Virus record (IMG/VR): IMGVR_UViG_3300036766_002288
Span: 1 to 64,000 of that record
DNA length: 64,000 nt
Reading direction: 5' to 3' (one strand)
DNA from: a virus
Shown: positions 13,345 to 56,657 of the stretch, one piece after another
Position numbering within the stretch: position 1 is the stretch's first letter
Layout: each line of letters starts with the position of its first letter
Notes under the pieces: generated by a model
Databases searched by the model: none
Told to the model about the DNA's origin: nothing
What the model saw: the letters and a program-made list of their open reading frames with translations, nothing else
Program-made: the position numbers and the translations under genes

Positions 13345-13376
13345 AATAAAGGCCACTAACAGTGGCCTTTATTTTT
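13345..13376. terminator. Bidirectional terminator
   Basis: AATAAAGGCCACT (13345-13357) and AGTGGCCTTTATT (13361-13373) with a three-base loop, lying between the converging vWA and protease genes. Confidence 0.85.
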
Positions 13377-14136
13377 TCACTTCATATTCTCTCAACTTCA
13401 AATAGTAAAAGGGCAATTTTGGCAATTCTTTATTTGTCCATGCAAAGTCTAAATTATTGTTATTGTCTTTGCTCCATACTTTAAATCGTTCTACTGGAAT
13501 TGCGTATGAAATGCCAAAAACGGGTGTATTCTTATATGAGCGAATAGATACCATAATAGCGATTAATTTGTACTCATGAAACAATGGAGACCCAGAATCT
13601 CCTGGTACTGTATGCACTGAAGTTCGAATGAATTGTTTTAATATGTTCTTTTTATATTGTGTTACTTTGCCATAGTCCAATCTTGGTTCATCTCCTAAAC
13701 CACAGCCAATTCTAAAAACTTCATTTCCAATAAATAGTTTTGGCTCAAAATCAATTTTGGCAACAGGCATTTCTTCTTCTGAGTAGAACATTCCAATTGA
13801 TAAGTCCAAGTCTCTGTTAACTCCATAAAAAAACGCTGGATAGATTTTGGTCTCTTTAATGTCCGACCAATTTTCATATACAACTTGTTTTACTTCATAA
13901 TCAAAATAATTTGGAGATTCCAAATGGGCACAACTCATAAAGACATTTTTGTATGTTTTATCATCGACTTTATCACTTCTGACTATGACCCCACTGCCAT
14001 AACTAGTCTTATCCGAACGACCAACATAAATGGTTGGATACAAGCATTTATGATGAAGTTCTTTGTCTGGCGTGCCAGCAAACGAAGATGTGAAGAATAG
14101 AAAAAGAGCAAATGAAGAGATTAGGAAATTTTTCAT
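13369..14136 (-). CDS. Exported trypsin-like serine protease
   Basis: A 255-residue protein with a signal peptide (residues about 1-20, MKNFLISSFALFLFFTSSFA), so it acts outside the cytoplasm or in the envelope. The catalytic triad is visible: His71 in SCAH, Asp at 109 or 111 in NRDLDLSIG, and Ser181 in VPGDSGSPLF. It may cut envelope or host surface proteins. An exact TATAAATA lies four bases before the ATG, so it is a late gene with a probably leaderless message. A host-derived gene is possible, since the fold is common in bacteria. Confidence 0.85.
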   Translation of the reverse strand: MKNFLISSFALFLFFTSSFAGTPDKELHHKCLYPTIYVGRSDKTSYGSGVIVRSDKVDDKTYKNVFMSCAHLESPNYFDYEVKQVVYENWSDIKETKIYPAFFYGVNRDLDLSIGMFYSEEEMPVAKIDFEPKLFIGNEVFRIGCGLGDEPRLDYGKVTQYKKNILKQFIRTSVHTVPGDSGSPLFHEYKLIAIMVSIRSYKNTPVFGISYAIPVERFKVWSKDNNNNLDFAWTNKELPKLPFYYLKLREYEVKK

Positions 14137-22202: not shown

Positions 22203-23015
22203 TTACTTTTTCCTGGTCTTATTCACATGCTTGGTCGCCCATTCATTAAAACTTCCTGGACCACCGATTTTCTGAGTAGGTGCATAACCAACTTCGCCTG
22301 GTGCAGGCTCAGTGTTTGCTGACTTGTTAGTGTCTTCTGGTGCAATTAAAGTATCTTCATCAACTGGAACCCAATAACCCTCTTCGTCCTTAGCAAACTT
22401 AGTTCCACCTGTCATATCCCTTAATTTAGCAAGGAAGCTGTTCTCTTCCTTTTCTTCTTTCGCCATCATATTACACTTGGAACATTTACCCTTTTGCTTA
22501 TACTTGAGCATGTCCGCACCGTTAGCAGAATTCTGTTTCTTGTCTTTCTCATCAACGGCATCTTTGCCTTCTTTTTTCATCATCATTGGTGGCTTTGCGC
22601 CCATGTCACCGCCTCCAAATGGTGGCTTTTTCTTCTTATCCATAGGTGGTGGTGGACCTTCTTCTCCATCGCCTTCATCACCCATATCATCATGGTCCTC
22701 ACCGTCTTCATCATGGTCATGATCTTCTTCATCGCCGTCTTCATCATGGTCCTCACCGTCTTCATCATCACCCATATCATCATGGTCATGATCTTCTTCA
22801 TCGCCGCCCATATCATCATCATCGGTGGCATCGGCACCGCCCATATCTGGGGCCATACCTGGGTCTTCACCTGGCATAGGCTTCTTGGCTTTTTTCATCA
22901 TGCCAAAAAGTCCAGGGGCTTCGTTTACTGAACCAACAATATTTGCAGACTTGACACCTAGATTTGTATAGCCAAGATTTTCCTGCAAAATTTTCCAAGT
23001 CTTATATGATATCAT
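22203..23015 (-). CDS. Asp/His/Glu-rich repeat protein with CTS-like N-terminus
   Basis: A 270-residue protein starting MISYKTWKILQENLGYTN, with LQE at 10-12. Residues about 55-120 are imperfect acidic repeats (DDMGDDEDGEDHDEDGDEED-type), which could bind divalent metal. Then come Met/Pro/Lys-rich linkers, a CSKCNMM pair and an ordered tail ending GSFNEWATKHVNKTRKK. It resembles a prohead core or scaffold protein in composition. CATAAATA and GGAG lie upstream. Confidence 0.65.
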   Translation of the reverse strand: MISYKTWKILQENLGYTNLGVKSANIVGSVNEAPGLFGMMKKAKKPMPGEDPGMAPDMGGADATDDDDMGGDEEDHDHDDMGDDEDGEDHDEDGDEEDHDHDEDGEDHDDMGDEGDGEEGPPPPMDKKKKPPFGGGDMGAKPPMMMKKEGKDAVDEKDKKQNSANGADMLKYKQKGKCSKCNMMAKEEKEENSFLAKLRDMTGGTKFAKDEEGYWVPVDEDTLIAPEDTNKSANTEPAPGEVGYAPTQKIGGPGSFNEWATKHVNKTRKK

Positions 23016-24958: not shown

Positions 24959-25681
24959 TTAACGACGAACAATCACTCTATTGCCAAAGAGTCCGTTTCT
25001 TACTACTATGTTAGCTCTGCCATTGTTTACAATAACTCTGCTACCAAATAAACCACCAAATAGACCGTTATTGACGACAACAGTATTGTTAAAACCAAAG
25101 CGATTTACTCCAAAAGTATTGAATCCAAAGCGATTGAATCCAACATGGTTAAAACCAACTCCGTAGCCAACACCAAAAGCTGGTGTGTAGGCAAGTGCTG
25201 GAGCTACTGCGCCGACTGGTGCAAAAGCAACAGGGGCAGGACAAGGATCAGCTACTGGTGCTGCAAAAGCAACAGGGGCAGCTTGGCAAGGTGCCGCGAC
25301 TGCATATGAAGCTGCTACTGGATAAGCAACAGGAACGGCCACAGTTACAGGAACAGGAACGGCATAACCAACGCCTACTCCATGAACACCGAAACCAAAT
25401 CCATGATTTACAAATCCGAAATTGTTAAATCCGAAACCAAATCCATGATTTACAAATCCGAAATTGTTAAATCCGAAACCAAATCCATGATTTACAAATC
25501 CGAAATTGTTAAATCCGAAACCAAATCCACGATTGACTACAACTACGTTACGATTGAATCCACGATTGACTACAACTGCATTGCGTCCGAGACCACGACG
25601 AACAACTACTGCGGCATCAGCTACTGGTGCTGCACTAAACAGCATGGCTGCGCCTAAAATCAAACTAGTTAACCACTTCAT
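24959..25681 (-). CDS. Exported Gly/Phe/Asn repeat protein, planctomycete-like
   Basis: A 240-residue protein with signal peptide MKWLTSLILGAAMLFSAAPV (cut after ADA). The mature part is low complexity: 14-residue units GFGFNNFGFVNHGF repeated about three times, an Ala/Val/Pro middle and a VNRFGF / RVIVNNG end. Surface proteins of this style are common in Gemmata-like planctomycetes. It may coat the cell or a particle. It is the last gene of the exported block, with AGGAGG before the ATG. Confidence 0.65.
   Translation of the reverse strand: MKWLTSLILGAAMLFSAAPVADAAVVVRRGLGRNAVVVNRGFNRNVVVVNRGFGFGFNNFGFVNHGFGFGFNNFGFVNHGFGFGFNNFGFVNHGFGFGVHGVGVGYAVPVPVTVAVPVAYPVAASYAVAAPCQAAPVAFAAPVADPCPAPVAFAPVGAVAPALAYTPAFGVGYGVGFNHVGFNRFGFNTFGVNRFGFNNTVVVNNGLFGGLFGSRVIVNNGRANIVVRNGLFGNRVIVRR
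25390..25530. repeat. Three exact 42-bp tandem repeats
   Basis: Units at 25390-25431, 25432-25473 and 25474-25515, with a partial fourth. Each encodes GFGFNNFGFVNHGF-type sequence of the exported protein. DNA identity of the copies suggests recent expansion. Confidence 0.85.
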
Positions 25682-25749: not shown

Positions 25750-26613
25750 TTAATTTACACCAATTTGCCTTAGCCATTCTAAAATACTCTGTCTTTCATA
25801 CACTGAAAGCTGAAATTGCGTTTCTTTTGGGGGCATATGGCCCCTAGCAACTTCTTCTTTAACTTTTAACCAATTAACATTTTGGTTCAAATGTCCAATC
25901 TGAGTATAGATTTGGAACTCCTTTTTAGCTCCTACCCCCGTATGGCATTGGGCACATGTCCTACCAAATGCGTTAAAAACCACCTGCGTTAATTGTTGAT
26001 CGGGTTGCCTGGGAGCCTGTGATTGTTGTGGTTGTGGTTGTGGTTGTGGTTGTGGTTGTGGCGTACCAGGAACGGGTGGAGGGCCACCATCAGAAGTTCC
26101 ATCTGCCATCTTATTCATTTCCTCCAACAACGCTTTAGCAAGTTCTCTAATTTGATCTTTCCTGCTAAGACCCAGCTGTTGTTGCTGTTGTTGCTGTTGT
26201 TGCATGTTATATGCATTGGGTTGCTGATATCCGTATGGTTGTGTTTGCATCCCATAACCATATGGTTGAACTGCCGCTGGATAAGCACCCTGCTGCACGA
26301 CAGGATAAGCTTGTGGGTATCCTGTTACAGGCACGGTCGGCACTGCATATGTGGTTGGGACATATTGAAACTGAAATGCTGGAACCAAAACAGGATATGC
26401 AAAAGTTGGTGTGCATATTGTTTCTACTACGGGGGCGCATACTGTAGTGCAGACGGTATTGCAAACTGGCGCACATACTGTTCCGCAACTCACTGGCGCG
26501 CAGCGACCTCTAAATATTCCACACCTTCTTCCGAAGGCAAAGGCATCGCTGCTTGCAAAAAATAGACTAATCGCTCCTACTGCTAATAATGTTATAAGTA
26601 CCCATTTTCTCAT
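25750..26613 (-). CDS. Exported protein with C-terminal c-type cytochrome domain
   Basis: A 287-residue protein. It has a signal peptide (about 1-26, MRKWVLITLLAVGAISLFFA), then a Cys-rich stretch (CGTVCAPVCNTVC), a Tyr/Pro/Gln-rich linker with poly-Q and (PQ)n, and a C-terminal domain at about 218-287. That domain has the haem motif CAQCH (220-224) and a likely axial Met in RGHMPPK (Met260), the usual cytochrome c order. It probably binds haem outside the cytoplasm. Phage cytochromes are hardly known. It resembles planctomycete c-type proteins, so recent acquisition is likely. Confidence 0.75.
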   Translation of the reverse strand: MRKWVLITLLAVGAISLFFASSDAFAFGRRCGIFRGRCAPVSCGTVCAPVCNTVCTTVCAPVVETICTPTFAYPVLVPAFQFQYVPTTYAVPTVPVTGYPQAYPVVQQGAYPAAVQPYGYGMQTQPYGYQQPNAYNMQQQQQQQQQLGLSRKDQIRELAKALLEEMNKMADGTSDGGPPPVPGTPQPQPQPQPQPQQSQAPRQPDQQLTQVVFNAFGRTCAQCHTGVGAKKEFQIYTQIGHLNQNVNWLKVKEEVARGHMPPKETQFQLSVYERQSILEWLRQIGVN

Positions 26614-26632
26614 ATCACTCCTTCTTAGTTAA

Positions 26633-28486
26633 TTATGGCTTCGGTATAGGAATAAGTGGTCCAGGTGGGAACTGATCCGCATGATCTAATCCTTGCTTCC
26701 TTGCCATAATTAAAATCATAAATCTCTGGAATGAATGCTCCCATTGGTCACGTTTAATGGGGCGGATCGGGCTACGCAATAACCCTAGAACCAAATTGTC
26801 CTTACTAGCCTTTATATATCCATCTAATTGGTTAAATTCTACACCAATATCTCTGGAAACCTCTTCATGTGTTAAAAGGTTCTCAATATAATTGTTGTAT
26901 ATCTCGCTCATGACTCTGGATACAACTTCTGATTGCAAACCAGTTGACCTAGAAACAGCATCACGATACAGATTTTGGTCTGCAACTATTTGCCTATCTA
27001 AGTCGGAACCAAATAAATCTTCAATCTTATAAAAATCTTCTTTCCTAGTTACCAATAACTTAAGTTCTCTAGGATTCTTTAATTTGTTTGTCAATGCGCG
27101 AACTTCGTCATTAATTGGTCTAATACCATCAGCATGACAAATCATACAACTTCTTCCTGGTCGTACCAGTCTGTCAACTGAACCATTATCAAGAGCAATT
27201 TCAGGATTAGCAAAATCAACTCTTTTCCCTTTACCATCCGTTAATAAATAAGCTTGCAGTCCATTTGGCAACGTTCCTATTTCTTCGGTTGCATCAAATT
27301 GCTCACGCAATAAGAATTGAACGTAATTCCTATCATCTACTGATTTTAATGAATCATGGCTTCTCCAGATATAGCCGCCCGTAAAAGTAGGGCTTCTATT
27401 TAGAGTCCTATTGTTTCTTGCAACCATTGAAGTTACAACAACAGCTTTATCCTGTGATCTTGCTTTTTCAGCAAGTTTTTCATCTGCAAAAATTAACTTG
27501 TCAAAATCTTCTGCTTTATCTCCTAGTTTCAAGAAATCATAGTAGGCTGGAGGGACTATAACATTTGACATAAACCAATCTCCTCTATAGATTGGAAAGT
27601 CAGAATGTGTGTTGCTCATCAATGTTTGATAACCTAACGGGTCTAACCAAGGCACCTTACAATCAATTACAAACTTTCTTTTATTAGAAACTGTTTCTTC
27701 TACTTCTACGTCCTCTAGAGTGACTACTTCTTTAAAAATCTGCTGACCACGTTGGTCATATTGATTAGTAGGAACTTTCTTAACTTTTTCTACCTGCTTC
27801 TTAACCTTTACCTTTTCAAAAACAGGTTGTTCTACGAACATATGGAAATAAGGTTCTGGCTGTGGATGGACTCCACTACCTTTAAGACCTAATTTCTCCC
27901 ATGCTTCAGGGGTCCATTCATAATCATTGATATTTAAACGAATCAAGGTTTCATCACTAGCCCCTACAAATTCTGGGATGTACATCTGTCTTCGTGTACT
28001 TAGAGAATTACACACGAAGGATAAGGCGGCAGCATATTCTTTCCTTTTGGCTTTTGGTATGTTATAGAGAGATATATAACGTATGTAAGGTCGCATTTCT
28101 ACTGGCAGTGATAATAAGTCACCAGTAGCAAATACAACTGCACTATTAGGCCCATATAAAATTTCAGGTGGTGGATTTAAATTAGGTGGCCCAACATTAG
28201 GCAGAGAATTAACCTGCTGATTAACAGGTGGTGTATCACTCACTTGTGGTGGCGGCGTTGGCGGCTCCACAAGTTTAGGCGGACCATTGTTAACTAATTG
28301 ACTATTTTTAGGCAACGAAACATCAACCCGTGGTGACGTAGTATTAATCACAGGTTGCGTTTTAACTTGCAAATCAGGAGTAGAAGTCTCAACTTTACGG
28401 TCTGCGTTGCGTGATGCTGCTGTTACGAATACTAAGACAGCAGCAACAATCGCTACACACGACATAATAACACTAAATTTTTTCAT
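26633..28486 (-). CDS. Large exported protein with a CxxCH haem motif, planctomycete-like
   Basis: A 617-residue protein. It has an N-terminal signal or anchor (MKKFSVIMSCVAIVAAVLVF), a Pro/Val-rich linker (about 30-110), then a folded body. One CMICH motif lies at 447-451 in GRSCMICHADGIRPIND, so covalent haem binding is likely, though the distal ligand is unclear. The body contains GGYIWRSHDSLKSVDDRNYV and similar blocks that I associate with planctomycete proteins. It lies 19 bases upstream of the smaller cytochrome-like gene, so the two may act together. Confidence 0.65.
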   Translation of the reverse strand: MKKFSVIMSCVAIVAAVLVFVTAASRNADRKVETSTPDLQVKTQPVINTTSPRVDVSLPKNSQLVNNGPPKLVEPPTPPPQVSDTPPVNQQVNSLPNVGPPNLNPPPEILYGPNSAVVFATGDLLSLPVEMRPYIRYISLYNIPKAKRKEYAAALSFVCNSLSTRRQMYIPEFVGASDETLIRLNINDYEWTPEAWEKLGLKGSGVHPQPEPYFHMFVEQPVFEKVKVKKQVEKVKKVPTNQYDQRGQQIFKEVVTLEDVEVEETVSNKRKFVIDCKVPWLDPLGYQTLMSNTHSDFPIYRGDWFMSNVIVPPAYYDFLKLGDKAEDFDKLIFADEKLAEKARSQDKAVVVTSMVARNNRTLNRSPTFTGGYIWRSHDSLKSVDDRNYVQFLLREQFDATEEIGTLPNGLQAYLLTDGKGKRVDFANPEIALDNGSVDRLVRPGRSCMICHADGIRPINDEVRALTNKLKNPRELKLLVTRKEDFYKIEDLFGSDLDRQIVADQNLYRDAVSRSTGLQSEVVSRVMSEIYNNYIENLLTHEEVSRDIGVEFNQLDGYIKASKDNLVLGLLRSPIRPIKRDQWEHSFQRFMILIMARKQGLDHADQFPPGPLIPIPKP

Positions 28487-29167: not shown

Positions 29168-30004
29168 TTAATTAGGTACAATAGGCACTTCATCAGCTGG
29201 GGTATTATCTTGTGGGTCATCTATAATTGCTTGAATTGCAAAAGCGTCTGGGTTCATCATGTTGAAATGACCCCTTTGCAAATAACAATGTCCATTCTTA
29301 CCAAAATTACTACCCCAACTATTCTGTATCTTAATTAGCCAGCCATATTTAGCTGATTTCTTGAGGCCCATGCCCAATACACAATGACCACCACCACCAC
29401 CTGCTGGCAACGGGGCAACACCTTCACTATCTAAATTTGGGAAATTATTGCCAACATATAATCCAAGAGGACATACAAAACCCAACGTAATTGCAGAACA
29501 AATGTCCTCGAAAGTCTGACAATGATAAGCCTGAGCCAGCTTAAATCTCTTAGCAATTTCAAAAGCGGTTGGCGGGAATTGATTTTGGAACATCGTTCCT
29601 GCTGGTATATCCCCTAATCGACAGATTCCATATTGCATTAAAGCTTTTAACGCATCGGAGATTTGTGCCCCTGCATCCCTTCCACCATTAATTAACCCAT
29701 ATGCAAAGAATGGCGTAAATGGAACCAATGGTCTTCCAGATTGCTTATAGCACATCTCCATACCCGAACATGTCCCATGTCCTACACAACTACTAGTCAT
29801 GCCCTGATTTAGAATCGGTAAGTTGTACCATTCTAAATCAATTTCCTGCCATTGCGATGGATCAAGGGTCGTAGCCATTGCTGACCCAAATTTTGGAAAC
29901 TCCTTTATGGACTCAGAAGTTTCGGGGATACATGCTAAAACTCTATAAAATCCATCGAATTTAATAGAAGGTAAATTACTAATTGAATACTTGCCTATAT
30001 GCAT
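29168..30004 (-). CDS. Papain-like cysteine protease (C1A family)
   Basis: A 278-residue protein. The active-site plan is complete: Gln67 and Cys73 in LNQGMTSSCVGHG, His207 in GGGGGHCVLGMG and Asn228 in IQNSWGSNFG. There is no signal peptide and no long propeptide, so it would be active in the cytosol unless exported another way. Proteins of this subtype (WYNLPILNQ...FAYGLINGGRDAG) are, as I recall, frequent in planctomycetes next to Ig-like exported proteins, as here. The start overlaps the upstream stop (TAATG). Confidence 0.8.
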   Translation of the reverse strand: MHIGKYSISNLPSIKFDGFYRVLACIPETSESIKEFPKFGSAMATTLDPSQWQEIDLEWYNLPILNQGMTSSCVGHGTCSGMEMCYKQSGRPLVPFTPFFAYGLINGGRDAGAQISDALKALMQYGICRLGDIPAGTMFQNQFPPTAFEIAKRFKLAQAYHCQTFEDICSAITLGFVCPLGLYVGNNFPNLDSEGVAPLPAGGGGGHCVLGMGLKKSAKYGWLIKIQNSWGSNFGKNGHCYLQRGHFNMMNPDAFAIQAIIDDPQDNTPADEVPIVPN

Positions 30005-31951: not shown

Positions 31952-32770
31952 ATGGCATCTGATAAGACTGAAATTGGAAATCGCATGAAATACTATGAAG
32001 GGTTTGAAACTCGTCGTAGACTTATGCCTTTAAATCCTGCTGTCTGCCGTTTAGATGGTAAGAATTTCCACAATTTTTGTCGTGGTTTAGAAAGACCTTA
32101 CGATGAACGCCTATCATCATTAATGTGTGACCTTACTACTTTCCTTGCCAAGGAGTTTTGCGCAGTTGCCGCCTATACTCAAAGTGATGAAATTACTCTT
32201 GTGTGGAATCAGGAAAGGTTTGATTCTGAAATCTTCTGTGATGGCAAGATTCAGAAAATGAATTCTTTATTGGCAGCTAGAACTTCTGTCAAATTTAATT
32301 CATTACTGTCCCAATACATTCCAGAAAAAGTCAGTATGGAACCGATCTTTGACTGCCGAATTTTCTCTTTGCCGAACACTACGGAAGCTGCCAACGTGTT
32401 CTTGTGGAGAGAAATTGATGCTGCGCGTAACAGCGTTCAAATGGCAGGGCGTGCTTATTTTTCTCATAATGAAGTGCAGGATAAGAATGGTTCAGAAATT
32501 CAGGAAATGCTTTTCTCAAAAAAGAACATTAACTGGAATGATTATCCTGCGTTTTTTCGCAGAGGTAGATATATATTACGGAGAATTAAAAAAGGAATAT
32601 TGAAATTTGAAGAAATAGAAACACTGCCACTAAAACACCACGCCCGCAGTAATCCAGAATTAGTTTGTGAACGAAATGTTTATGAAGAAGTTCATTTACC
32701 ACCGTTAAGGAAAATAGTCAATCGAGAAAGAGTTTTATTTTATAATGAGGAACCTAAAACAAAGGAATAG
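31952..32770 (+). CDS. Thg1-like 3'-5' RNA polymerase (tRNA-His guanylyltransferase family)
   Basis: A 272-residue protein that adds nucleotides to RNA 5' ends in the reverse direction. The palm motif RLDGKNFH (33-40) carries one metal-binding Asp, and TQSDEITLVW (76-85) the second acidic pair. The later HNEVQDKNG-type region is also typical of Thg1. Bacterial and phage members (TLPs) repair 5'-truncated tRNAs rather than adding G-1. An RNA ligase directly upstream supports a tRNA repair pathway against anticodon or acceptor nucleases. Confidence 0.85.
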   Translation: MASDKTEIGNRMKYYEGFETRRRLMPLNPAVCRLDGKNFHNFCRGLERPYDERLSSLMCDLTTFLAKEFCAVAAYTQSDEITLVWNQERFDSEIFCDGKIQKMNSLLAARTSVKFNSLLSQYIPEKVSMEPIFDCRIFSLPNTTEAANVFLWREIDAARNSVQMAGRAYFSHNEVQDKNGSEIQEMLFSKKNINWNDYPAFFRRGRYILRRIKKGILKFEEIETLPLKHHARSNPELVCERNVYEEVHLPPLRKIVNRERVLFYNEEPKTKE

Positions 32771-55019: not shown

Positions 55020-56657
55020 TTATGTAGTAATCAACGATTCAGATTTGTGCTTCATACTAGCTTTAATTAAGCCATCAAACAAAGGTGCAGGTGCATTCAA
55101 GCGACTCTTAAATTCTGGGTGCGCTTGAGTTCCAACAAAGAAAGGATGTGATTCAGACTCTAATTCCATCATTTCCACTAAGTTAGTCACAGGATTAGTC
55201 CCAGAAACTTTAAACTTACCTAACGTGGCAAGTGAAGAAACATATTCAGAATTAACCTCATAACGATGGCGATGCCGTTCACTTATTAACTTCTTTTTAT
55301 ATAAACACTGGACAATACTATCTTTGACTAAATCACACTCATACGCACCCAATCGCATTGTTCCAGATTTCTTTTTAATGCTCTCTTGCCCTTCTACAAA
55401 GTGAATTACAGGATGCTTGGCATCTTTATCAAACTCTATACTGTTCGCACCTTCTAGCATACAAATATTACGTGCAACCTCAATTACGGCACATTGTAAG
55501 CCAAGACAAATGCCTAAGAAAGGTATTTTTTTCTCTCTTACATACTTAATTGCTCTGATCTTACCTTCAATACCAGAAGAATCAAACCCACCTGGAACTA
55601 TTATGCCATCTACATCTTCGAAATATTTCCAGACACCACGCATGTCTTTGGGTTGTTCAAGTTCCTTTGAGTTAATCCAACCAATTGTTACTTTTACTTC
55701 ATTTGCAACGGCAGCATGATATATGGCTTCTTTCAACGACAGATAAGCTTCGTCACAATTATCGTATTTGCCTACAATGGCTATATTAATGGTTGGCATG
55801 TCTACGTTGCCAACATACTTCTCAACCAAGTCACGATACTTGTGTATTCTGCATCCGTTTCTTTTCAGATGGAATTTGTCTACGATTAAATCATCAATGT
55901 GCCTTTCATAAAACTCAATTGGCACTTGATAAATTGTCTTAACATCTGGTGCGTCAAATACAGCTTCTCTAGGCACGTTAGTTAAATGTGAAATCTTATC
56001 CAGAATCTTTGGTGGAATTTCCCTGTCTATTCTGCAAAGAAGGATATCAGGCTGAATACCAAAAGATTGTAATTCTTTAATACTATTCTGCAATGGTTTG
56101 GTTTTAAATTCCTTGATGGTAGGAATCCACAAAATTGGGGCTACCATAACAACCAATACGTCATTCCAGTTTTTTTGCTTAAATTGCCTGATGGCTTCAA
56201 GATAAGGCCCGCTTTCAAGATCACCAACAGTACCACCTATTTCGCATATAACAATATCCGATTCCTTTCCTAACTGTGTAAGTCTATCCTGAATCTTATC
56301 TGTGAGATGTGGAATGATTTGTACAGTCTGTCCTAAATATTTTCCATCTTCTTCTTCAGTTAGCAACTCTTTGTATAAAGTCCCACTTGTGAGAATGTTT
56401 TTTGATGAAACTTCGATGCCTATAATACGTTCATAATGACCTAAATCGAGGTCAGTTTCGGTACCATCATCACATAGGAAACATTCCCCATGTTCACGGG
56501 GCGCAAGAACCCCAGCGTTGGTATTGAAATAAGGATCAAATTTGATTGGCTGCACTTTAAGTCCTCTTAAACTTAAGAGAAACCCAATAGATGCAGCAGC
56601 AATTCCCTTACCACCACCAGATATTACACCGCCAAGAACAATAATATACTTACACAT
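55020..56657 (-). CDS. pyrG: CTP synthase
   Basis: A 545-residue full-length enzyme converting UTP to CTP with glutamine and ATP. The synthase domain has GGVISGGGKGIAAASIG (9-25) and ICEIGGTVGDLES (138-149). The glutaminase domain has Cys384 in FLGICLGLQ, and His513 and Glu515 in GTQAHPEF. Nothing is missing. Phages rarely carry this gene. It should raise CTP, and with the nearby ribonucleotide reductase dCTP, during replication. Confidence 0.9.
   Translation of the reverse strand: MCKYIIVLGGVISGGGKGIAAASIGFLLSLRGLKVQPIKFDPYFNTNAGVLAPREHGECFLCDDGTETDLDLGHYERIIGIEVSSKNILTSGTLYKELLTEEEDGKYLGQTVQIIPHLTDKIQDRLTQLGKESDIVICEIGGTVGDLESGPYLEAIRQFKQKNWNDVLVVMVAPILWIPTIKEFKTKPLQNSIKELQSFGIQPDILLCRIDREIPPKILDKISHLTNVPREAVFDAPDVKTIYQVPIEFYERHIDDLIVDKFHLKRNGCRIHKYRDLVEKYVGNVDMPTINIAIVGKYDNCDEAYLSLKEAIYHAAVANEVKVTIGWINSKELEQPKDMRGVWKYFEDVDGIIVPGGFDSSGIEGKIRAIKYVREKKIPFLGICLGLQCAVIEVARNICMLEGANSIEFDKDAKHPVIHFVEGQESIKKKSGTMRLGAYECDLVKDSIVQCLYKKKLISERHRHRYEVNSEYVSSLATLGKFKVSGTNPVTNLVEMMELESESHPFFVGTQAHPEFKSRLNAPAPLFDGLIKASMKHKSESLITT

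What the first reader, a model, noticed from the sequence alone, without database searches (positions are those of the whole stretch)
25750..28486. Two adjacent phage genes encode exported proteins with c-type haem motifs
The 287-residue protein has CAQCH and a later RGHMPP (likely axial Met). The 617-residue one has CMICH. Both start with export signals and lie in one operon. Phage c-type cytochromes are hardly known. They could take part in respiration, redox defence or electron transfer at the envelope during infection.
Basis: partly seen in the sequence, partly recalled or inferred. Interest (0 to 1): 0.85.

Follow-up and report, generated by a model that had tools for sequence, protein, structure and literature searches.

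The report
Huge-phage pair of exported haem proteins
A very large bacterial virus carries two neighbouring genes for exported proteins that almost certainly bind haem c; relatives of the pair in bacterial cells are mostly one fused protein, so the two probably form a single electron-transfer device that related viruses have kept, although what it does is not known.

Summary
On the minus strand, 26633-28486 (617 aa, CMICH) and 25750-26613 (287 aa, CAQCH, later MPP) are adjacent exported proteins in a block of co-directed genes. They are not an assembly artefact: the pair sits side by side in ten distinct phage loci, including the 595-kb huge phage LR756511.1, and both genes are under purifying selection. 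In nine small proteins the CxxCH and the later Met-Pro are almost the only invariant residues. In 22 large proteins CxxCH is invariant, but no Met, His or Lys is conserved as a sixth ligand. The new finding is in cells: 17 of 20 bacterial homologues fuse a small-type cytochrome c domain to the large domain in one chain, typically a lipoprotein. The phage pair is therefore a split version of an unnamed cellular di-haem protein. The large domain has no Pfam or NCBIfam family and no fold match in the PDB. The phage records searched carry no cytochrome c assembly gene (PF01578), so the host must attach the haem. Best guess: the small protein passes electrons to a catalytic or ligand-binding haem in the large one, in the envelope of the infected cell. 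The reaction is unknown. The predicted models could not confirm a haem pocket.

The parts
26633..28486 (-). Large exported haem protein, 617 aa, one CxxCH; novel family
   Evidence: ORF; homologues in ten phage loci and 20 bacterial copies; no Pfam or NCBIfam family at E<=0.1
25750..26613 (-). Small exported mono-haem cytochrome c, 287 aa: signal peptide, long Pro/Gln-rich low-complexity stretch, C-terminal cytochrome c domain
   Evidence: ORF; Pfam Cytochrome_CBB3 sub-threshold for this copy (19.1 of 27 bits), just over the cut-off for relatives L008 (27.3) and G004 (30.2)
27134..27148 (-). Haem-attachment motif CMICH (residues 447-451) of the large protein
   Evidence: invariant in 22 of 22 sequences
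25942..25956 (-). Haem-attachment motif CAQCH (residues 220-224) of the small protein
   Evidence: C, C and H invariant in 9 of 9
25831..25836 (-). Met260-Pro261, predicted axial Met ligand of the small protein
   Evidence: invariant in 9 of 9; matching MPP, MPS or MPI after the first CxxCH in the cellular fusions
26536..26613 (-). Signal peptide of the small protein, MRKWVLITLLAVGAISLFFASSDAFA
   Evidence: sequence
28412..28486 (-). N-terminal hydrophobic export/anchor segment of the large protein
   Evidence: sequence; replaced by cleavable-type signals in L008 and L021
27662..27841 (-). Predicted long beta-hairpin arm (about residues 216-275), present in the close phage group only, missing from cellular copies, L023, L034 and the paralogues
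   Evidence: AlphaFold model, (strands 112-139 and 145-171 of the model); alignment gaps
24959..25681 (-). Exported Val/Asn/Phe/Gly-rich low-complexity protein downstream, 240 aa
   Evidence: ORF; homologues follow the pair in L006, L021, L022, L024; similar exported proteins follow in L023 and L034
28493..29158 (-). Protein of about 35-residue amphipathic repeats, 221 aa
   Evidence: ORF; homologues upstream of the pair in L006, L021, L022, L024; weak SapB_2 match
29168..30004 (-). Papain-like cysteine peptidase, 278 aa
   Evidence: Pfam Peptidase_C1 21.4 bits (cut-off 20.7); phrog_16701 peptidase 7e-11; homologues in L006, L021, L024
30004..30771 (-). Exported protein, 255 aa, first gene of the block
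   Evidence: ORF; homologues in L006, L021, L024; no family

Best explanation
The two genes encode an exported two-haem electron-transfer module of a huge tailed phage, and the pair is the split counterpart of a cellular di-haem protein. Steps: (1, strongly supported) both proteins carry CxxCH and are exported; (2, inferred) haem is attached in the periplasm by the host's cytochrome c assembly system; (3, inferred from invariant residues) the small protein is a His/Met mono-haem electron carrier on a long flexible tether; (4, inferred) the large protein holds a haem with a His proximal ligand and no conserved Met/His/Lys sixth ligand, with invariant Tyr315, Trp374, Tyr413 and Arg/Asp/Glu residues, and so is more likely catalytic or ligand-binding than a plain carrier; (5, inferred from the fusions) the small protein passes electrons to or from the large one in a complex at the envelope of the infected cell. 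The chemistry (for example reduction of peroxide or another oxidant, or sensing) is a guess.
For: CxxCH and Met-Pro invariant in nine small proteins. CxxCH invariant in 22 large ones, with no conserved M/H/K elsewhere but invariant Y315, W374, Y413. The two genes are adjacent in all ten phage loci examined. 17 of 20 cellular copies carry both domains in one chain, the small-type domain N-terminal; a profile of the phage small domain finds that N-terminal domain, sequence E down to 3.5e-8. In Neorhizobium the fused protein carries four CxxCH and lies next to a ferric-reductase-like transmembrane flavoprotein gene. dN/dS 0.10-0.26. No cytochrome c assembly gene (PF01578) in five phage records searched whole, while the same search rings in 11 of 14 control genomes.
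Against: No haem pocket was shown: the large model (pLDDT 81) is uncertain around CxxCH and matches no solved or viral fold at E<=0.001; the small model is poor (pLDDT 55) and matches nothing. The window's small protein is below the Pfam cut-off. Absence of a sixth ligand is read from an alignment, not from a structure. Host and reaction are unknown. Fusion suggests partnership but does not show electron flow. Three cellular copies and the phage paralogues lack the small domain.
Confidence: 0.5

Rival explanations
1. Plain respiratory support: the pair is an auxiliary metabolic set in which both proteins are ordinary electron carriers that keep the host's electron transport chain running during a long infection.
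For: c-type motifs and export. The phage record also carries other metabolic genes, such as an isocitrate lyase homologue. soxD genes with cytochrome c motifs are reported in phages (PMC8190135) and Borgs carry multihaem cytochromes (PMC9605863).
Against: The large protein has no conserved sixth ligand and no known cytochrome fold. No homologue found is a known respiratory protein. The phage copies form one old clade apart from the cellular copies (support 0.999) rather than looking like recently captured host genes.
Confidence: 0.2
2. Counter-defence or manipulation of an envelope protease system: the phage has taken a component of a host redox system linked to caspase-like proteases and uses it, with its own cysteine peptidases, to block or steer that system.
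For: A caspase-like gene lies near the cellular homologue in two unrelated bacteria (L026; Neorhizobium plasmid). Both phage copies lie near a papain- or C39-like cysteine peptidase gene, and the second arrangement recurs in LR756511.
Against: The caspase homologues were not found near the other eight cellular loci read with flanks. Caspase-like genes are common in such large genomes (established knowledge, not tested here). None of the cytochromes matches a PADLOC model. Proteases of unlike families are weak evidence of a link.
Confidence: 0.13
3. Envelope or extracellular structure: the pair is laid down, with the Val/Asn-rich exported protein made by the next gene, as a haem-bearing coat or fibre on the infected cell.
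For: The order large, small, low-complexity exported protein is kept across the phages, even at about 25-35% identity. The small protein has a long Pro/Gln-rich stretch and a conserved VPVLVPAFQFQY segment.
Against: Low-complexity exported proteins are common and no assembly was tested. Cellular copies lack the low-complexity partner in the loci read.
Confidence: 0.1
4. No haem: CxxCH is a zinc or disulphide motif, or the region is a chimeric join.
For: Short motifs occur by chance, and five other ORFs of the record carry CxxCH without export signals. Models do not show a pocket.
Against: Invariance of CxxCH together with a later Met-Pro in exported proteins; Pfam cytochrome families match relatives and cellular fusions above cut-off; synteny over about 25 kb with LR756511 and in other contigs excludes a chimera.
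Confidence: 0.05

Closest known systems
Unnamed fused di-haem lipoproteins of bacteria: large-genome relatives of G001 (probably Myxococcota, inferred; one record titled Pseudomonadota) and Neorhizobium petrolearium plasmid protein WP_227705619.1 ('c-type cytochrome')
   Same: Both domains, both CxxCH, the Met-Pro after the first haem, invariant residues of the large domain, export
   Different: One chain instead of two; mostly a lipidated N-terminus; no phage-type beta-hairpin arm; the Neorhizobium copy has two further cytochrome c motifs
Cytochrome_CBB3 (PF13442) and PSCyt1 (PF07635) mono-haem cytochrome c domains
   Same: Small protein: CxxCH plus axial Met, domain of about 70-80 residues
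   Different: Window copy scores under both cut-offs; long low-complexity N-terminal part
Di-haem cytochrome c peroxidase / MauG (as a working analogy, from general knowledge)
   Same: One electron-transfer haem serving a second haem thought to be open or Tyr-ligated
   Different: Separate genes here, no sequence similarity to solved members, large domain of unrelated sequence, no activity shown
Phage soxD auxiliary genes (PMC8190135)
   Same: Phage-encoded exported proteins with cytochrome c motifs
   Different: soxD belongs to a known sulfur oxidation pathway; some phage copies lack the motif; no pairing with a new family
Borg multihaem cytochromes (PMC9605863)
   Same: Large extrachromosomal element carrying c-type cytochromes
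   Different: Borgs are archaeal elements, not tailed phages; the proteins are multihaem

Membership tests
c-type cytochrome, His/Met mono-haem (small protein) | CxxCH haem attachment motif | tested here: met
   invariant in 9 of 9
c-type cytochrome, His/Met mono-haem (small protein) | Axial Met downstream | tested here: met
   Met260-Pro261 invariant
c-type cytochrome, His/Met mono-haem (small protein) | Score above the curated cut-off of a cytochrome c family | tested here: inconclusive
   window copy 19.1 of 27 bits; relatives 27.3 and 30.2
c-type cytochrome, His/Met mono-haem (small protein) | Cytochrome c fold | tested here: inconclusive
   low-confidence model, no match
c-type cytochrome, His/Met mono-haem (small protein) | Export to the compartment of haem attachment | tested here: met
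   signal peptide, (hydrophobicity and cleavage motif, not a trained predictor)
c-type haem protein (large protein) | CxxCH invariant across homologues | tested here: met
   22 of 22
c-type haem protein (large protein) | Match to a known cytochrome family or fold | tested here: not met
c-type haem protein (large protein) | Covalent haem c | not testable with these tools
   needs a spectrum or haem stain
Bacterial fused di-haem family found here | Homologous large domain with CxxCH | tested here: met
   E down to 1e-57 with the phage profile
Bacterial fused di-haem family found here | Small-type cytochrome c domain in the same chain | tested here: not met
   the phage encodes it as a separate adjacent gene
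Di-haem cytochrome c peroxidase / MauG | Sequence similarity to solved members | tested here: not met
Di-haem cytochrome c peroxidase / MauG | Peroxidase-type activity | not testable with these tools
   needs purified proteins
Auxiliary metabolic gene of a phage | Lies in a phage genome, between phage genes | tested here: met
   tail sheath, sheath stabiliser and baseplate hub in the same window; synteny with LR756511
Auxiliary metabolic gene of a phage | Recent origin from a host metabolic gene | tested here: inconclusive
   phage copies form their own clade; host unknown

The most novel reading that the evidence does not exclude
A previously undescribed family of haem c enzymes with a new fold, found as fused lipoproteins in bacteria and split in two by huge phages, which use it to run a specific redox reaction in the envelope of the infected cell, possibly against host defence.
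Probability: 0.3. Interest if true: 0.8.

Novelty: new variant of a known kind. Interest (0 to 1): 0.62.

Why it matters
Phage-encoded c-type cytochromes with firm evidence are few. Here a pair is kept across several distinct huge phages and has been duplicated within them, which says that envelope redox chemistry matters to these infections. The large domain is a family without a name or solved fold, so the case also points to an uncharacterised di-haem protein of bacteria that can be expressed and studied directly. The fused cellular form makes a clear prediction, that the two phage proteins work together, which is easy to test.

Tried and rejected
Chimera or contamination: rejected by synteny with LR756511 and other contigs and by host-like composition of the rest of the phage genome (GC and GC3 of both genes lie near the phage mean). 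First searches for relatives of the large protein: a single-sequence scan of viral contigs and the first scan of genome contigs found nothing; a trimmed core alignment did. Structure route: no match for either model in the PDB, none for the large model in BFVD. PHROGs, NCBIfam and PADLOC: no family for the large protein. Caspase link: followed up and found in only two cellular loci, so not made the main claim. Literature: no paper found that names LR756511 or this family; the huge-phage paper and the jumbo-phage review do not mention cytochromes in their main text.

Full report
Check of the observation. Both ORFs exist exactly as described on the minus strand. The smaller has a cleavable-type signal peptide, a long Pro/Gln-rich stretch and a C-terminal region with CAQCH and, 36 residues after the His, Met-Pro. 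The larger has an N-terminal hydrophobic segment and CMICH at residue 447. The genes lie 19 bases apart inside a block of co-directed genes from 30771 down to 24959: exported protein, papain-like peptidase, repeat protein, large haem protein, small haem protein, low-complexity exported protein.

Is it phage? The same window holds tail sheath, sheath stabiliser and baseplate hub genes. The window is the first 64 kb of a 187,011-base virus record. The cytochrome pair and its neighbours recur in IMG/VR contigs up to 340,934 bases and in LR756511.1, a 595,163-base uncultured phage record, where about 25 kb on both sides of the pair corresponds gene by gene. A chimeric join is excluded for practical purposes.

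Is it haem? In nine small proteins as divergent as 24% identity to the window copy, seven positions are invariant: two prolines, the C, C and H of CxxCH, and Met-Pro. In 22 large proteins from phages and bacteria, C447, C450, H451 and G454 are invariant, along with N160, Y315, S353, V355, W374, Y413, D503 and R579. Selection is purifying, dN/dS 0.10-0.26 where synonymous sites are not saturated. Pfam cytochrome c models match the small protein weakly in the window and over the cut-off in relatives. I take c-type haem in the small protein as nearly certain and in the large protein as very likely. Neither is proved.

What is the large domain? No Pfam or NCBIfam family, no solved relative by sequence. 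The AlphaFold model is good (pLDDT 81, pTM 0.80) but matches no solved structure or viral model at E 0.001. The region around CxxCH is among the less certain parts, as expected without haem. A long beta-hairpin (about residues 216-275) is specific to the close phage group. Across 22 sequences no Met, His or Lys other than the CxxCH His is conserved, whereas two Tyr and one Trp are invariant. That fits a haem with an open or Tyr-ligated distal side, hence a catalytic or binding role, but it is an inference from an alignment.

The cellular form. A scan of bacterial genomes found one homologue: a single lipoprotein in which a small-type cytochrome c domain (CYACH ... GTMPP) precedes the large domain (CMNCH). 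Searching 284 genomes of its phylum gave ten with a match at E 1e-5, and order- and class-level searches gave more, seven copies in one genome. Of 20 copies read, 17 have the N-terminal cytochrome domain and the other three lack it. A profile built from the phage small domain finds it (sequence E 3.5e-8 to 1e-3). A Neorhizobium plasmid protein carries two more cytochrome c motifs in front, in a run of genes with a caspase family protein, an OmpA family protein and a ferric-reductase-like flavoprotein. The rule that proteins fused in one genome and separate neighbours in another tend to work together makes a complex of the two phage proteins likely.

Evolution. All phage copies, including a second, shorter phage copy (record 151804-152952, next to a C39-like peptidase gene) and its counterparts in LR756511 and G002, group together: in the tree the twelve phage sequences form one clade with support 0.999. 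The family has been in these phages for a long time and was duplicated there.

How it most likely works. Exported by the host's Sec route, given haem by the host's assembly machinery (five phage records have no PF01578 gene, while the control search rings in 11 of 14 genomes), the small protein shuttles electrons to the haem of the large protein at the envelope. The substrate is unknown. Peroxide or another oxidant is a reasonable first guess by analogy with di-haem peroxidases, no more.

Novelty. Cytochrome motifs in phage genes are known for soxD and multihaem cytochromes for Borgs. I found no report of this pair or of the large family. I call it a new variant of a known kind.

Limits. Host unknown; no named-taxon search possible; MAG taxonomy of L026 uncertain (record title Pseudomonadota; composition and gene content suggest Myxococcota, inferred). 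Export was judged by hydrophobicity and cleavage motif. No coordinates of the models were at hand, so the haem site could not be measured.

Noticed in passing
record 102017-103306 (L011:1017-2306): Isocitrate lyase homologue (Pfam ICL, E 4e-96) in the phage record, an unusual central-metabolism gene for a phage.
   Followed up: no
record 122782-130368 (L012:2782-10368): Run of MoxR-type AAA ATPase, DUF58, and VWA-domain genes, like the bacterial MoxR/Bat aerotolerance-type operon.
   Followed up: partly
record 151193-152952 (L013:12193-13952): Second copy of the large haem family (382 aa, CVACH) directly after a C39-like peptidase gene; same arrangement in LR756511 (L025).
   Followed up: yes
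window 31952-32770: ORF that reads like a tRNA-His guanylyltransferase (Thg1-like), kept near the cytochrome block in the other phages; recognised by eye only.
   Followed up: no
window 55020-56657: ORF that reads like CTP synthase by eye; matches phrog_28378 (unknown function) at 6e-167.
   Followed up: no
window 13369-14136: Exported trypsin-like peptidase (Pfam Trypsin_2, E 4e-12).
   Followed up: no
window 22203-23015: Protein with long Asp/Glu/His/Gly repeats (HDHDDMGDDEDGEDHDED), kept as a Met/Asp/Gly-rich gene in related phages.
   Followed up: no
L084:4434-11376 (NZ_CP123001.1): Neorhizobium gene run of caspase family protein, OmpA, ferric-reductase-like flavoprotein and a four-CxxCH relative of the phage pair.
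   Followed up: partly
G410: One bacterial genome carries seven copies of the fused or large-domain family, suggesting lineage-specific expansion.
   Followed up: no
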